Virus record (IMG/VR): IMGVR_UViG_3300037541_000804
Span: 62,001-126,000 of that record
DNA from: a virus
DNA length: 64,000 nucleotides
Direction: 5' to 3' (one strand)
Position 1 is the stretch's first letter; every line of letters starts with the position of its first letter. This document shows positions 25,588 through 54,861 of the stretch, piece after piece. The notes below the pieces were generated by a model. It did not search any database. It saw nothing but the letters and a program-made list of their open reading frames with translations, and was not told the DNA's origin. The position numbers were made by a program, and so were the translations under genes.

Positions 25588-25739
25588 TGTTTAACTATTT
25601 TAAAAAACGCGCCCAAAAGAAAAGACAAAAACTCGGCGGAAGATGGGAAAACATTAAATATCTATTCCATAGCCGAATACATCCCTACCATCCTTTGGGC
25701 GCTCAAGATTGTCCTTTTCCCACAAGGGTCTTAAATTAG
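25587..25739 (+). pseudogene. 5' part of a small gene apparently split by an HNH insertion
   Basis: Starts by TAATG overlap with the previous gene: MFNYFKKRAQKKRQKLGG. From about 25654 the frame runs antisense through the 3' end of the minus-strand HNH gene and stops at 25739, so the last 30 codons are unlikely to be native. A small Cys-containing frame resumes at 26441-26548 and feeds into the next gene by ATGA overlap, as expected if one gene of about 60 codons was interrupted. Confidence 0.45.
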
Positions 25740-26442
25740 TATAATGAAAGCATCTCTTTTGATCGTCCTCCCTAGTTAGGTCAAAAGTGTTGCATGGACG
25801 GATATGATCAATATGCCATTTATCAATGCCTTTCCCTCTATTTTCCCAACTCATCCCATCCACAAATTGATCTTCTAAATATTTTATTAAAAACTCAATT
25901 GAACACCCAACAAGCTCCATAGATTTTTTCATTTTTTGAGATTTTGCCAACCTTATTACATTGGCTATTCTACACGCTAGAATAGCACGAATCTTTCCCT
26001 GTTCTTTGTTTCTTTTTTGACGAGCGCTAATCTCTTCTGAGAACAAGTGGGAAGATTTGCTTCTATAAAAGTGTTCCATTTTTACAGAGCTTTCTCTGCC
26101 TTTTAAGCAAAATGGCCTACCAGCAATAGTCGCAATTATTTGCCGCCTCGCTTTTAGTCTATAAACCAATCTTGCCTCTTCATTGTCATAAGGTTTTCCA
26201 AGATAAATAAAAATTGTTAAATTGTTAAGACAATCAAATTCCTCCTTAGATTTCAAATCAACCAAAGTGAAAATAAGAGCGTCCTTATTTTTTGTTAAAC
26301 AAAATCTATTACCCACAACTTTCTGATTCCCAATTTTCAAATGTCCAAAATTTGAATGATCACCACCAAACTTCCTCGCTAATTCTCTAATTGATTCTGT
26401 GGTGGGTCTTTTAGTTATTACGTCGTAGATTTCTTCGTTCAT
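25654..26442 (-). CDS. HNH homing endonuclease
   Basis: 262 residues. The C-terminal module reads FLIKYLEDQFVDGMSWEN...WHIDHIRPCNTFDL...HYTNLRPLWEKDN, a complete HNH core (H-I-D-H, then N and a final NLRPLW helix). Residues 1-150 form an unrelated N-terminal DNA-binding part. It is on the minus strand inside a plus-strand operon, is AT-rich, and has its own L-motif 11 bases upstream of the ATG. The same C-terminal module occurs as a fragment at 50477-50668. Confidence 0.88.
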   Translation of the reverse strand: MNEEIYDVITKRPTTESIRELARKFGGDHSNFGHLKIGNQKVVGNRFCLTKNKDALIFTLVDLKSKEEFDCLNNLTIFIYLGKPYDNEEARLVYRLKARRQIIATIAGRPFCLKGRESSVKMEHFYRSKSSHLFSEEISARQKRNKEQGKIRAILACRIANVIRLAKSQKMKKSMELVGCSIEFLIKYLEDQFVDGMSWENRGKGIDKWHIDHIRPCNTFDLTREDDQKRCFHYTNLRPLWEKDNLERPKDGRDVFGYGIDI

Positions 26443-48521: not shown

Positions 48522-48936
48522 CAATCAATAAAGCGTTAAACTCCTTCTCTGTCAACGGGTTTGAGTCAATATATTCGCCGTCTTTGGGTGATTCCAAGGT
48601 GTAGAGAATTTCAATCAGTTCTTTGGATTTTTCTTCCTGAACGGCGAGGGCAATTTCTTTCTTTAAGTTACTGGTTTTCAACGCGATAGCGCCAGCGACG
48701 ACTTGAAAGAGCGGCGATTTCTCGCGGGGTTTAAGGGAATCTCGCAATTCTTTATTGTCGGCCAAAAGAGGCAAAACTGGCATTTTTACTTGGCGCAAGA
48801 ACATTCTTGTTTTATCATCGCGGCCCAAACAAAAGAATTCATTAGTTTGTCGGCGCTTCTTCTGTTCGGTCAAGTAATAGAATGCGTTGTTGACTTGATC
48901 TACTGTAGCGAATTGAGTGTATTTGTCTTTAATCAT
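48490..48936 (-). CDS. hypothetical protein
   Basis: 148 residues, charged, alpha/beta with a FNALLIDEKAP end. TQFATVDQVNNAFYYLTEQKKRR is an N-terminal helix pair. ATGA overlap with 48933-49166. Confidence 0.55.
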   Translation of the reverse strand: MIKDKYTQFATVDQVNNAFYYLTEQKKRRQTNEFFCLGRDDKTRMFLRQVKMPVLPLLADNKELRDSLKPREKSPLFQVVAGAIALKTSNLKKEIALAVQEEKSKELIEILYTLESPKDGEYIDSNPLTEKEFNALLIDEKAPNEKSS

Positions 48937-49166
48937 GGTTTCAATTTACGTTTATTATTCCAGTTGTCAAGATGTTTTTGACACATATCAATCCAACCTA
49001 TCAACGCCTCGTCTTTGGTTAGAATCGCCCGCTTCTTTACCTCAAACAAGAATTCGGCGTATTCTTTCGGGCGCGAAGAGTAATAGCGATTGATTTGCCA
49101 ATAGTCGAACCCCCTTACAAGGCCCAAGTGTTTAATACAGCGAAAGAGGTTTTTTAGGGATTGCAT
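48933..49166 (-). CDS. hypothetical basic protein
   Basis: 77 residues, Arg/Lys/Tyr-rich helix bundle. Next to the left end of the first tnpB element. TAAAAT precedes the ATG, but the place expected for a -35 box is element DNA, so the insertion may have removed it. Confidence 0.55.
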   Translation of the reverse strand: MQSLKNLFRCIKHLGLVRGFDYWQINRYYSSRPKEYAEFLFEVKKRAILTKDEALIGWIDMCQKHLDNWNNKRKLKP

Positions 49167-49257
49167 GATTTTATTAGTAAATTGACGAAAAGAAAACCCC
49201 TTCGTTTACGGAGGGGATGAATTTTCGCATTGTTTTAGGAAATTTTGTAAAAGTTAG

Positions 49258-49263
49258 TGTAAT
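49258..49263 (+). promoter_or_regulatory. L-motif TGTAAT of element 1
   Basis: TTAGTGTAATATA context, 9 bases to the tnpB ATG. The same context precedes tnpB of element 2. Confidence 0.5.
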
Positions 49264-49272
49264 ATAATTTGA

Positions 49273-50433
49273 ATGACGCATCGCGGCTACAAATATCGCA
49301 TATATCCAACAGCTTGTCAAGAGGGAATCTTGCGCAAAACGATTGGATCGTGTAGATTTGTGTACAATTGGGCGCTGGCACAGCGGCGAGAGGCGTGGGT
49401 GACGAGTAAAAAAAGCGTTTCTTACAGCGCAACGTCCAAAGGTTTGACCGAACTCAAGGAGTCGCCCGAGAAAGTTTGGCTTAACGACGTTTCAAGCGTT
49501 TGCTTACAACAAAGTTTGCGAAATCTTGATTTGGCGTTTAACAACTTTTTTCGCAAAAAATCCGCATATCCATCTTTCAAGAGTCGAAAAAATGGTGGCA
49601 GTGCGCGATTTATGGATAACGCTTTCCAAATTAAAGGAGATGGCTTGTTTCTTGCAAAAATTAAAACGCCAATCGTGATTAAGTGGTCGCGTCAGCTTTC
49701 CAGCGCTCCTAATTCATGCACAATTTCCCAAAACGCTGCGGGTCAGTGGTTTGCATCGTTCTTGTGCGAGGAAGAAATACCTCACTTGCCGCCAACGAAT
49801 AACAAGGTTGGCATTGACGTTGGAATTGAAAACTTTGCCACACTTTCAGACGGGCGAAAATTTCAATCTCCGAAAGCGATTCGTAAGTTGCGCAAAAAGT
49901 TAGCATGCTTGCAAAAGCGTCACTCGCGCAAGCAAAAAGGCTCTAAAAACCGTGAACGCGCTCGCAAAAAGGTTGCCCGCGTTCACCAGCACATCGCAGA
50001 TGTGCGTAAAGATTTTCTCCACAAACTGTCAACTCAACTCGTTCGCGAAAACCAAGCGATTGCAATTGAGGATTTGGCGGTGTCAAACATGGTTAAGAAC
50101 CGCAAACTTTCTCGCTGTATCAGCGAGCAAGGCTGGCGCGACTTTCGCACTATGCTTGAATACAAGTGCGAATGGTATGGGCGAGAACTACTTGTCGTTG
50201 ACAGGTTTTTTCCCTCATCCAAGACCTGTTCTTGTTGTGGAGCGAAAGCAGAGTTAACATTGAAAGATCGTGTTTGGAGTTGCGCCTGTGGCGCAACGCA
50301 TGATCGCGACGTGAACGCCGCGAAAAACATTTTGGCCGCTGGACAAGCGGTTGCAGCCTGTGGAGCTGACGGAAGACCAACGAAGAACTACGTTCTTCGC
50401 GGCAGTCGGCAACGAAGCAGGAAACCTTCTTAG
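49273..50433 (+). CDS. tnpB: TnpB RNA-guided nuclease, element 1
   Basis: 386 residues. N-terminal helix-turn-helix (MTHRGYKYRIYPTACQEGILR), wedge region, then RuvC: VGIDVGIENFATL (first Asp), IAIEDLAVSNMVKN (Glu) and HDRDVNAAKNIL (last Asp). The zinc module is CSCCG...CACG, with C-x-C in the second knuckle where the second copy has C-x2-C. All three catalytic acids remain, so the protein should be active. TnpB cuts DNA guided by an omega RNA made from its own right end. Confidence 0.9.
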   Translation: MTHRGYKYRIYPTACQEGILRKTIGSCRFVYNWALAQRREAWVTSKKSVSYSATSKGLTELKESPEKVWLNDVSSVCLQQSLRNLDLAFNNFFRKKSAYPSFKSRKNGGSARFMDNAFQIKGDGLFLAKIKTPIVIKWSRQLSSAPNSCTISQNAAGQWFASFLCEEEIPHLPPTNNKVGIDVGIENFATLSDGRKFQSPKAIRKLRKKLACLQKRHSRKQKGSKNRERARKKVARVHQHIADVRKDFLHKLSTQLVRENQAIAIEDLAVSNMVKNRKLSRCISEQGWRDFRTMLEYKCEWYGRELLVVDRFFPSSKTCSCCGAKAELTLKDRVWSCACGATHDRDVNAAKNILAAGQAVAACGADGRPTKNYVLRGSRQRSRKPS

Positions 50434-50496
50434 CAACGAGAAGAATCCCCGTCGTTCACGGCGGGGAGTATGTCAATTAGAAAAACAATTCAAACA
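50330..50496 (+). ncRNA. predicted omega RNA of element 1 with guide into HNH sequence
   Basis: By analogy with IS605 TnpB systems, the RNA scaffold overlaps the 3' end of tnpB and ends in the right-end hairpin. The guide is whatever follows TGTCAA. Here it would be TTAGAAAAACAATTCAAACA, part of the HNH coding sequence. The 5' boundary is a guess. Confidence 0.45.
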
Positions 50497-50668
50497 AGGA
50501 ATGACATGGGAAAATCATGGTGTTCATGGGTGGCATATTGACCACATAATCCCACTGTCCTCTGCCAAGGACGATATTGAACTGTTGAAAAAACTTTGCC
50601 ATTATACTAATCTTCAACCTCTTTGGGCCGAAGAAAACAGGATTAAATCTAACAAGATAACAGCTTAA
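50477..50668 (+). pseudogene. C-terminal fragment of an HNH endonuclease gene
   Basis: Reads LEKQFKQGMTWENHGVHGWH, IDHIIPLSSAKDDIELLK and HYTNLQPLWAEENRIK: the H-I-D-H and NLqPLW halves of an HNH core, the same module as the end of 25654-26442. The N-terminal half is missing; the bases left of the element encode nothing of it. Its stop overlaps the end of the converging RuvB-like gene by 20 bases. Confidence 0.75.
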
Positions 50669-51584
50669 CCACTTCTCGCCCTTTCGATGATAGCTCTCGC
50701 TTCCCATTAAGGCGCAAAAATCCCTTCTTTAATAGGTGATGCTCATGATCTTGACGCAAGGCTGTAGCTGGAACGCTCATGCATGCTGAAATTTCTGTCA
50801 GGGTCATTGGCCCGCGTTCGTAAAGCAATTTTAGTATCCCAAGCTCCAAATTATCGAGTCCGTGAACTTTAATATCTGCAATATTTGAGAGATTCGCAAA
50901 GTCCGCCGAATCAAAAGAATTTCTTTTCTTAATCGCACAAAAGTTAGCCACCTTGCGAGCCATTTGTCCAGCATCGCGAGGATTTGGCCTGATACTATCA
51001 ACAATTTCCTCCAAAATATTATCCTCGAATTCGATTTCTGGCACGTTTAATTGAATAATTTGCATTAGTTCGCTCTTTGAATACGGTGCAAGAGAAACAA
51101 CCTCCATTCGGCTCTTCAACGGTTTGCCAAGTTTATTAGAATCCGTAGTGGCAAAATTCATCGACAATTTGCAAAAATCAAACTCATAATCTGTCCCGTC
51201 GTGATTAACGCGGCGAATATGGCTCTTTTCAGTGTTAAGCAGGGTCAAAAACCACGTTTGGACGGCGCGAGGAAGCTCGTGTGACTCGTCTAGCAAAAGA
51301 CAAACGTTCTCCCTATCAACAATATGAGGCATATATACATTGTCGATAAACCACTGAACGCTTTTAACGTTTGCAGAGTTAATTTCGATATATTTGCCCG
51401 TTGTTCCAGACTTAGTAATCTCTTTTGCAAACTCTCGAATGAACCTTGTTTTCCCAAACCCAAAAGCCCCCGTGAACAAAAGATGTGGCAATGGCCGTCC
51501 TGCTTCGCGGGTTTCTAGGTGAAACGATAGCAAAGACTTGATTTTATCCTGTCCCGTTAGATTAGCGAATAGTGTTTTAGTCAT
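50649..51584 (-). CDS. ruvB: RuvB-like branch-migration ATPase
   Basis: 311 residues. Short N-terminal part (LTGQDKIKSLLSFHLETREAGRPLPHLLFTGAFGFGKTRFI) with Walker A GAFGFGKT, Walker B VCLLLDESHEL, sensor-1 FATTDS, and the arginine-finger/sensor-2 region GKPLKSRMEVVSLAPYS. An AAA+ lid with PNPRDAGQMARKVANFCAIK follows, then a winged helix starting HGLDNLELGILKLLYERGPMTLTEISACMSVP, exactly the RuvB order. RuvB drives Holliday junction migration with RuvA. No ruvA was seen here, so host RuvA or another phage factor may serve. Strong E-promoter. Confidence 0.8.
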   Translation of the reverse strand: MTKTLFANLTGQDKIKSLLSFHLETREAGRPLPHLLFTGAFGFGKTRFIREFAKEITKSGTTGKYIEINSANVKSVQWFIDNVYMPHIVDRENVCLLLDESHELPRAVQTWFLTLLNTEKSHIRRVNHDGTDYEFDFCKLSMNFATTDSNKLGKPLKSRMEVVSLAPYSKSELMQIIQLNVPEIEFEDNILEEIVDSIRPNPRDAGQMARKVANFCAIKKRNSFDSADFANLSNIADIKVHGLDNLELGILKLLYERGPMTLTEISACMSVPATALRQDHEHHLLKKGFLRLNGKRELSSKGREVVKLLSC

Positions 51585-53256: not shown

Positions 53257-53410
53257 AAATTGGAAATGAGAATTGCCACTTTCGATACTACGAAAAGTCC
53301 CTAATCCTCCCTTGCGGGTAGTGGCCCGTTTTGCATTAGGCTCTCATTGTTTAGAAATTATTGCCTGTCTCTCCAAGCTGTCACCGATGGCCTTTACCAA
53401 ACCACGCGCA
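53257..53410. other. gene-free stretch with nested hairpins
   Basis: CCTAAT/ATTAGG encloses CGGG/CCCG (about 53300-53343), and ACTTTCG can pair with CGAAA-GT just before (about 53277-53300). It lies between the tRNA-like gene and element 2 and may be part of a longer structured RNA. Confidence 0.35.
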
Positions 53411-53495
53411 AAGAAAGCCCCTTCCTTTAGGTAGGGGATGAATTTGCGGTCAAACAAAATAATTAAAAAGTTTTTGGGTGTTTTTTAACAATTAG

Positions 53496-53501
53496 TGTAA
53501 T
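53496..53501 (+). promoter_or_regulatory. L-motif TGTAAT of element 2
   Basis: TTAGTGTAATATA, 9 bases to the TTG start of tnpB. Confidence 0.5.
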
Positions 53502-53510
53502 ATATGGTGA

Positions 53511-54701
53511 TTGCACCACCGCGCTTACAAATTCCGAATTTATCCAACGACAGCGCAAGAACAAATCTTGCGGCAGACGATTGGGTGTACGCGGTTCATC
53601 TATAATTGGGCGCTGGCCCAAAGAAGGGAGGCATGGGTGCAAGATAAGAAAAACATGACCTATGCAAAGTCTTGCAAAGCGTTGACGGAGTTAAAAGACT
53701 CGCCAGAGCGCGAGTGGCTTAACGATGTGTCAAGCGTTTGCTTGCAACAAAGCCTCAATAACTTGGACGTTGCATTCGGCAATTTCTTTAAGAAGCGGGC
53801 GGCATATCCCAGCTTTAAGTCTCGCAAAAACGGTGGTTCTGCGCGGTTTATGGGCAACGCCTTTCGGCTGAAAGGCGAAAGCCTCTTCCTCGCGAAGATT
53901 AAAACGCCAATTAAAGTTCAATGGTCGCGCCCGCTTTCCAGCGTTCCGAACTCCATTACCGTTTCTCAAAACGCCAGCGGTCAATGGTTTGCGTCGTTCC
54001 TTTGTGAGGAGGAAATTGAAAAGCTTCCGCCTTCCAACGGTCGAATCGGTATCGACGTTGGTATTGAAAATTTTGCCACACTCTCGGATGGGTGCAAATT
54101 TCAATCTCCAAAAGCAATTCGTAAACTGCGCAAGAAAATGGCACGCCTGCAAAAGAGTCATTCGCGTAAGCAAAAAGGCTCCAAAAACCGTGAACGCACT
54201 CGCAAAAAAGTCGCCCGCCTTCACCAGCATATTTCAGATGTGCGCAAAGATTTTCTCCACAAACTGTCAACTCAACTCGTTCGCGAAAACCAAGCGATAG
54301 CGTTAGAAGACTTGTCTGTATCAAACATGGTTAAGAACCGCAAACTTTCTCGCTGTATCAGCGAGCAAGGCTGGCGAGACTTTCGCACCATGCTTGAATA
54401 CAAATGCGAATGGTATGGGCGCGAGCTACTAATAGTAGATCGTTGGTTTCCAAGCAGCAAAACCTGCTCATGTTGTGGAGCGAAGGCTAGCTTTGGCCTA
54501 GAAACAAGGCAATGGACGTGTGGCGGCTGCGGCGCTAGCCATGACCGAGACGTTAACGCCGCAAAAAACATTTTGGCCGCTGGACAAGCGGTGTCAGACT
54601 GTGGAGTGGACGGAAGACCAACGAAGAACTATGTTCTTCGGGGCAGGACACTACGAAGCAGTAAATCAAAGGCGCGAGCCAAGGAATCCCCGTCTCTTTA
54701 G
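53511..54701 (+). CDS. tnpB: TnpB RNA-guided nuclease, element 2
   Basis: 396 residues, beginning at TTG (MHHRAYKFRIYPTTAQEQIL); the ATG and GTG just upstream are out of frame. RuvC residues are complete: IGIDVGIENFATL, IALEDLSVSNMVKN and HDRDVNAAKNIL. Zinc module CSCCG...CGGCG (C-x2-C). Same domain order as copy 1, with a central stretch nearly identical at DNA level and more divergent ends. Confidence 0.9.
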   Translation: MHHRAYKFRIYPTTAQEQILRQTIGCTRFIYNWALAQRREAWVQDKKNMTYAKSCKALTELKDSPEREWLNDVSSVCLQQSLNNLDVAFGNFFKKRAAYPSFKSRKNGGSARFMGNAFRLKGESLFLAKIKTPIKVQWSRPLSSVPNSITVSQNASGQWFASFLCEEEIEKLPPSNGRIGIDVGIENFATLSDGCKFQSPKAIRKLRKKMARLQKSHSRKQKGSKNRERTRKKVARLHQHISDVRKDFLHKLSTQLVRENQAIALEDLSVSNMVKNRKLSRCISEQGWRDFRTMLEYKCEWYGRELLIVDRWFPSSKTCSCCGAKASFGLETRQWTCGGCGASHDRDVNAAKNILAAGQAVSDCGVDGRPTKNYVLRGRTLRSSKSKARAKESPSL

Positions 54702-54738
54702 GGCGGGGAGGATGTCAACTGTCTAATAAAACTTTAGC
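54570..54738 (+). ncRNA. predicted omega RNA of element 2
   Basis: Scaffold over the tnpB 3' end and right hairpin; guide after TGTCAA would be CTGTCTAATAAAACTTTAGC, which runs into the left arm of the inverted repeat at 54729. The 5' boundary is a guess. Confidence 0.4.
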
Positions 54739-54861
54739 ACGCTAAATTCGTTCCGTCAATCCCCAAGACACAATATCGAGGGGCGAAACCATTAACCGTT
54801 GGTTCCAGCAATCAACCCATTTGTAGGGTGCCTATCGCGTTTAGGCACGGTGCTAAAGTTT
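54729..54861. ncRNA. candidate structured RNA closed by a 12-bp stem
   Basis: AAACTTTAGCAC (54729-54740) pairs perfectly with GTGCTAAAGTTT (54850-54861). Inside are four further helices: CCCC/GGGG (54761-54764/54780-54783), AACC/GGTT (54794-54797/54801-54804), ACCC/GGGT (54815-54818/54826-54829) and GTGCCTA/TAGGCAC (54828-54834/54842-54848); the last two overlap by two bases. No ORF crosses it. The strand is undecided: it follows the stop of 54868-55122 on the minus strand and element 2 on the plus strand. Confidence 0.5.

What the first reader, a model, noticed from the sequence alone, without database searches (positions are those of the whole stretch)
49190..50668. TnpB element whose predicted guide targets an HNH endonuclease gene
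The right end of element 1 is followed directly by the coding sequence of an HNH core, so the omega RNA guide would match uninterrupted HNH alleles. One selfish nuclease would thus home into, or police, another. The N-terminal half of that HNH gene is absent on the left side, so a deletion or rearrangement followed. A full HNH gene of the same type exists at 25654-26442, but its matching stretch differs in sequence, so it should escape.
Basis: partly seen in the sequence, partly recalled or inferred. Interest (0 to 1): 0.75.

Follow-up and report, generated by a model that had tools for sequence, protein, structure and literature searches.

The report
TnpB element stranded beside HNH-gene remnant
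In an uncultured virus of microbes, a small RNA-guided selfish element once jumped into another selfish nuclease gene whose front half was later lost, so its guide RNA still spells that gene; this is normal TnpB biology with mismatched flanks, not a new kind of system.

Summary
Window 49175-50476 is a complete solo-tnpB IS200/IS605-type element in a 165-kb virus record. Its right end is TGTCAA (50471-50476). HNH-endonuclease homology (63 codons, the C-terminal half) begins exactly at the next base, so by the known TnpB rule the guide, TTAGAAAAACAATTCAAACA, lies in an HNH gene. TTTAT is supported as TAM because excising a sister element at TTTAT|...|TGTCAA restores an FkbM gene, and HNH genes of this family often carry TTTAT at this very codon (KIY|LEKQF).

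No exact target plus TAM was found in IMG/VR. Two HNH alleles have TTTAT with 2-3 mismatches outside the first 10 bases. An HNH allele with a perfect 20-mer (two contigs) lacks the TAM. The phage's own HNH copy (7 mismatches, ATAT) should escape.

The HNH N-terminal half is missing from the record, and the left flank is upstream of an unrelated gene. The element therefore has chimeric flanks, most likely from recombination between element copies or a deletion ending at TTTAT. Targeting HNH genes follows from where the element once inserted; homing or 'policing' is not shown.

The parts
49170..49174 (+). TTTAT motif flanking the left end (inferred TAM / insertion target)
   Evidence: TTTAT or a one-base variant lies upstream of the left-end hairpin in every element of the family that has a recognisable left end: el1, L096 and L102 TTTAT, el2 TTTAC, el3 CTTAT; excision at TTTAT in L102 restores an FkbM ORF
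49175..50476 (+). complete solo-tnpB IS200/IS605-type element (el1), 1302 bp
   Evidence: boundaries from comparison of five elements
49197..49216 (+). left-end subterminal hairpin CCCCTTCGTTTACGGAGGGG
   Evidence: present with sequence changes in the other four elements
49273..50433 (+). TnpB ORF, 386 aa, RuvC D/E/D motifs intact
   Evidence: Pfam PF01385, PF07282, PF12323; aligned to 8bf8/8h1j ISDra2 TnpB, E about 4e-81
50447..50466 (+). right-end hairpin CCCCGTCGTTCACGGCGGGG (3' part of the presumed omega RNA scaffold)
   Evidence: right-end alignment of five elements; identical 35-nt solo copy elsewhere in the genome
50471..50476 (+). TGTCAA, right-end cleavage motif and element boundary
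   Evidence: invariant in five elements; HNH homology begins at the next base
50477..50496 (+). predicted omega RNA guide TTAGAAAAACAATTCAAACA, in HNH codons LEKQFK
   Evidence: position rule of ISDra2 TnpB (PMC8612924); HNH alignment
50477..50668 (+). C-terminal half of an HNH endonuclease gene (63 codons plus stop)
   Evidence: HMM of 73 homologs, E=1.5e-37; up to 82% identity to viral HNH proteins
48933..49166 (-). 77-aa gene of the left flank; el1 starts 8 bp upstream of its start codon
   Evidence: homolog in L005/L006 with conserved neighbourhood
50649..51584 (-). RuvB/clamp-loader-like ATPase of the right flank, tail-to-tail with the HNH fragment
   Evidence: PF05496, phrog_5846 clamp loader, 82% identical in L005/L006
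25654..26442 (-). full-length HNH gene predicted to escape el1's guide
   Evidence: 7 of 20 mismatches, ATAT instead of TTTAT
53398..54718 (+). second TnpB element (el2), TTTAC|...|TGTCAA, 74% identical to el1

Best explanation
el1 (49175-50476) is a solo-tnpB IS200/IS605-type element. It, or the right half of it, was inserted into an HNH (homing-type) endonuclease gene at an in-gene TTTAT, most likely between codons Y and L of ..KIY|LEKQF... [boundaries shown; the TTTAT in the lost HNH half is inferred]. The TnpB-bound omega RNA made from its right end would carry 16-20 bases of the HNH gene as guide and, with a TTTAT TAM, would cut intact HNH alleles [inferred from ISDra2 and other TnpBs]. 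Later the HNH N-terminal half and anything beside it was lost, so the left end now abuts the upstream region of a 77-aa gene at another TTTAT [shown: chimeric flanks; event inferred]. My preferred route is recombination between two directly repeated copies of the element (about 45%). Next is a deletion between two TTTAT motifs, by transposase action or microhomology (about 30%). The HNH-directed guide is a record of the old insertion site, not evidence of a dedicated anti-HNH function.
For: HNH homology starts exactly at the base after TGTCAA. TGTCAA is invariant. Excising L102's element at TTTAT|...|TGTCAA rejoins an ORF, and the FkbM domain PF05050 then spans the join, matching residues 24-130 with the join at residue 99. 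TTTAT is the reported left-end motif of solo tnpB elements in Sulfolobus (PMC10640517). In HNH homologs the base before TTAGAA is often preceded by TTTAT because of the K-I-Y codons (L028, L048; L278). Relatives L005/L006 have neither TnpB nor HNH between the two flank genes, but have a small gene and an SprT-like gene there; the SprT-like gene gives no hit in the whole 165-kb record, consistent with a deletion at this place. The elements are mosaics: several triplets reject a single history by MaxChi, e.g. el1 against L096 and L102, P=0.0005, so element-to-element recombination does happen in this family.
Against: No intact precursor (HNH gene at this locus, or HNH gene with the element and both halves) was found. 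The SprT-like gene may simply be an acquisition of the L005/L006 lineage. MaxChi P values are from 30 overlapping tests and show that recombination occurred, not that it made this junction. TAM and cleavage are inferred from sequence only.
Confidence: 0.72

Rival explanations
1. The element moved from an HNH locus with part of the HNH gene as a passenger: one-ended or imprecise transposition used a surrogate right end beyond the HNH fragment and inserted at TTTAT upstream of the 77-aa gene.
For: The left end looks like a normal TTTAT insertion with a clean boundary, and the HNH fragment is short and ends close to the ATPase gene.
Against: The passenger would have to end at a TCAA-like site; instead the fragment ends at its natural stop codon, overlapping the ATPase 3' end by about 20 bp, as a resident convergent gene would. 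No Y1 transposase is in the record.
Confidence: 0.15
2. TnpB as a weapon: el1 is kept because its guide cuts HNH homing endonuclease genes of co-infecting phages, protecting this phage or its own diverged HNH gene.
For: TnpB ORF and right end are intact; the guide lies in a conserved HNH motif, so many HNH alleles match within a few bases; the phage's own HNH gene would be spared. Nuclease-based competition between co-infecting phages is documented for an intron endonuclease (PMC11620839, abstract).
Against: Insertion alone explains the guide. No exact target with TAM was found. No independent TnpB-HNH junction was found. The other two elements do not have HNH guides.
Confidence: 0.08
3. The junction is a chance rearrangement or assembly chimera, and the HNH fragment has nothing to do with the insertion site.
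For: The record is metagenomic and unfinished; no second copy of the junction is available.
Against: Homology begins at the exact base after the transposon terminus, unlikely for a random breakpoint; an assembly break between element copies would more probably fall inside the 1.3-kb repeat.
Confidence: 0.05

Closest known systems
ISDra2 TnpB-reRNA (IS200/IS605; PMC8612924)
   Same: TnpB homolog (E about 4e-81) with intact RuvC motifs; right end followed by the guide; motif at the left end expected to act as TAM
   Different: TAM inferred as TTTAT rather than TTGAT; no tnpA in the element or in the record; flanks come from two different loci
Solo-tnpB elements of Sulfolobus islandicus with 5'-TTTAT left motif (PMC10640517)
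   Same: solo tnpB, TTTAT at the left end, conserved right end with variable 3' flank
   Different: different host range and only distant sequence; activity untested here
IS200/IS605 TnpB gene drive on plasmids (PMC11870625)
   Same: guide records the insertion site and so targets element-free copies
   Different: here the element-free site is an HNH gene and one flank has been lost, so copying back would lack one homology arm
Phage free-standing HNH endonucleases (homing-type)
   Same: 63-codon fragment with the full HNH core, up to 82% identical to viral HNH proteins
   Different: N-terminal half absent; a remnant, not a functional gene by annotation

Membership tests
IS200/IS605 solo-tnpB (IS1341-like) element | TnpB ORF with OrfB_IS605 and zinc-ribbon/TNB domains | tested here: met
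IS200/IS605 solo-tnpB (IS1341-like) element | no tnpA in the element; mobilised in trans | tested here: met
   no Y1_Tnp match in the 165-kb record; 10 of 14 control genomes did ring; mobilisation itself not testable
IS200/IS605 solo-tnpB (IS1341-like) element | subterminal hairpins at both ends, insertion 3' of a short T-rich motif without target duplication | tested here: met
   hairpins aligned in five elements; excision at TTTAT|...|TGTCAA restores FkbM in L102
RNA-guided TnpB nuclease | RuvC catalytic residues D/E/D | tested here: met
   alignment to 8bf8/8h1j: GIDVGIENFA, IAIEDL, HDRDVNAA
RNA-guided TnpB nuclease | omega RNA from the right end with guide from the 3' flank, and TAM-dependent cleavage | not testable with these tools
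   sequence conservation of the right end only; no RNA or cleavage data
HNH homing endonuclease gene interrupted by TnpB | HNH sequence starts exactly at the element's right terminus | tested here: met
HNH homing endonuclease gene interrupted by TnpB | the other half of the same gene ends exactly at the left terminus | tested here: not met
   no HNH in the left flank or elsewhere in the record except 25654-26442
TnpB directed against HNH genes (dedicated anti-HNH system) | recurrent, independent TnpB-HNH junctions or HNH guides | tested here: not met
   none in 160 TnpB loci, 89 loci of the HNH and guide searches, or a collection scan of TGTCAA followed by LExxQF codons
TnpB directed against HNH genes (dedicated anti-HNH system) | target HNH alleles with TAM exist | tested here: inconclusive
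   near-matches with TTTAT (L278 two mismatches, L267 three), none exact

The most novel reading that the evidence does not exclude
The rearrangement left an immobile TnpB whose fixed guide against a conserved HNH motif is now kept by selection as an RNA-guided weapon against homing endonucleases of co-infecting phages, while the phage's own HNH gene has diverged to escape.
Probability: 0.06. Interest if true: 0.75.

Novelty: new member of a known kind. Interest (0 to 1): 0.35.

Why it matters
It is a clear natural example of one selfish nuclease (TnpB) landing in another (HNH) inside a phage, and it shows that TnpB elements can lose the match between their two flanks through rearrangement. 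Such stranded elements keep a guide that no longer serves to restore the element at its own site. That is the raw material from which a domesticated guide-dependent function could arise, and the cutting of HNH alleles can be tested directly.

Tried and rejected
Reading TGAC/TTGAC at the left end as the TAM (it is shared by el1, L096 and L102 but absent in el2 and el3) was replaced by TTTAT after the L102 excision test. The empty site of el2 in L005 could not be aligned (intergenic sequence too diverged). A scan for other TnpB right ends joined to HNH codons gave 16 hits, none a TnpB end. More distant ATPase relatives were sought to find an HNH-bearing precursor locus; only the same two contigs came back. 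Seven of the nine exact 20-mer matches are unrelated genes (a phage large-subunit-like protein and a deformylase-like protein) without TAM. An AGTGTAATA motif upstream of the TnpB genes was considered as a phage promoter, but there are only 3 copies in the window. The Rfam scan found nothing in the window.

Full report
What is there. The window is bases 62001-126000 of a 165,329-base virus record. The record holds three full TnpB elements: el1 (window 49175-50476), el2 (window 53398-54718) and el3 (record 53263-54572), 70-74% identical to each other. It also holds one solo right-end hairpin (record 130385-130419, minus strand) identical to el1's over 35 bases. el1's ORF, 49273-50433, is a TnpB by Pfam, and its RuvC motifs line up with those of the ISDra2 TnpB structures. 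The record has no Y1 transposase, so these are solo-tnpB elements.

Boundaries. The right end AGTATGTCAA is shared by el1, el3 and L102, and TGTCAA is invariant in all five distinct elements compared. The left end lies about 20 bases upstream of a conserved hairpin and follows TTTAT (el1, L096, L102), TTTAC (el2) or CTTAT (el3). An independent test fixes both ends: cutting L102's element out at TTTAT|...|TGTCAA rejoins an uninterrupted ORF, and the FkbM methyltransferase domain (PF05050, E=4.6e-6, above its curated cut-off) then runs across the join. In the literature, solo tnpB elements of Sulfolobus islandicus also have TTTAT at the left end, and the seed of a relative covers target positions 1-10 (PMC10640517). 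TTTAT as TAM of el1 is therefore a supported inference, not a measurement.

The HNH junction. The 192 bases after TGTCAA encode 63 residues, LEKQFKQGMTWENHGVHGWHIDHII...NKITA, the C-terminal half of a widespread phage HNH family. A model from 73 homologs matches at E=1.5e-37 starting at its midpoint. In 80 homologs the residue before the Leu is His or Tyr, so homology stops exactly at the transposon terminus. A random breakpoint would rarely do that; insertion of the element into the HNH gene explains it. Several homologs have the codons K-I-Y before the Leu, which spell TTTAT directly in front of TTAGAA (L028, L048; L278), so an HNH allele with the right TAM at the right place is natural.

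Who would be cut. Under the ISDra2 rule (guide = about 16-20 bases of the right flank, TAM = left motif; PMC8612924) the guide is TTAGAAAAACAATTCAAACA. In 2.9 million viral contigs the exact 20-mer occurs in 9 stretches. Two contigs carry an HNH gene preceded by AACAT (no TAM); seven are unrelated genes without TAM. A degenerate search for TTAY plus the LEKQFK codons found HNH alleles with the full TTTAT and mismatches at 12 and 19 (L278) or 12, 18 and 20 (L267), and alleles with ATTAT and mismatches only at 18 and 19 (L270, L275, L279). Some alleles are thus plausible targets, none exact. The phage's own HNH gene (25654-26442) has 7 mismatches, two of them in the first 10 bases, and ATAT in place of the TAM, so it should escape.

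The left flank. The element begins 8 bases upstream of the start codon of a 77-aa gene on the other strand. No HNH N-terminal half is there or anywhere else in the record. In the two nearest relatives (L005/L006, ATPase 82% identical), the ATPase gene and the 77-aa gene are separated by a small gene and an SprT-like gene, with no HNH and no TnpB. The SprT-like gene gives no hit in the 165-kb record. el1 therefore has flanks from two places. Three routes are possible: recombination between one copy in the 77-aa upstream region and another in the HNH gene, removing what lay between; a deletion from the upstream TTTAT to the TTTAT at the element's left end; or transfer of the element with an HNH passenger. 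Mosaic patterns among the elements (MaxChi, several triplets at P of 0.0005 or below in 2000 permutations, 30 triplets tested) show that copies do recombine, which favours the first route without proving it. The HNH fragment ends at its natural stop codon and overlaps the ATPase 3' end, as a resident convergent gene would, which speaks against the passenger route.

What it means. TnpB guides always point to the place of insertion, so 'TnpB aimed at an HNH gene' needs no special function. No other TnpB-HNH junction was found in 160 TnpB loci, 89 HNH and guide-match loci, or a collection scan, so there is no recurrent strategy. With only one HNH arm left, el1 cannot simply be copied back into HNH alleles by two-sided repair. 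If the TnpB is active, it would only cut alleles near the target. That cutting could harm a co-infecting phage, and nuclease-based competition between phages is known for an intron endonuclease (PMC11620839, abstract), but nothing here shows selection for it. I file it as a new member of a known kind with an instructive rearrangement.

Noticed in passing
L004:1493-1535 (record G000 about 130385-130427, minus strand), outside the window: A solo TnpB right-end hairpin, 35 bases identical to el1's, preceded by TTTTTAT and 8 more bases and ending in TGTCAA: a 43-bp internal-deletion remnant with both terminal motifs, 66 bases upstream of the start of a conserved phage gene (MKLLGVTNGKK...).
   Followed up: partly
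L003:2806-2823 and L003:2943-2976 (record G000 about 54573-54743): el3's right flank encodes LTQAQK (TTAACACAGGCTCAAAAG) about 150 bases before a resident gene starting MAISY|LTQAQK; the six shared codons differ only synonymously, again a gene fragment beside a TnpB right end with a diverged intact copy nearby.
   Followed up: partly
L259 and L261 (records G001/G002): Relatives carry an ORF that looks GIY-YIG-like (by eye, not searched) between a duplicated 5' piece and the full copy of the same conserved gene (MKLLG...) that has the solo hairpin upstream in G000; the locus seems a repeated target of mobile nucleases.
   Followed up: no
L102:2898-4206, also L100 and L101: A TnpB element interrupts an FkbM methyltransferase gene; joining the flanks at TTTAT and TGTCAA restores the frame and the domain, which makes it a good reference for the element ends.
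   Followed up: yes
el1, el2, el3, L096, L102: The elements are mosaics: identity to el1 swings between 54% and 96% per 100 bases with different best partners, suggesting gene conversion among phage TnpB copies.
   Followed up: partly
L097, L098, L099 (record of L005 among them): Close TnpB relatives (80%) whose right ends keep TGTCAA but have a diverged hairpin and whose left-end hairpin is not recognisable.
   Followed up: no
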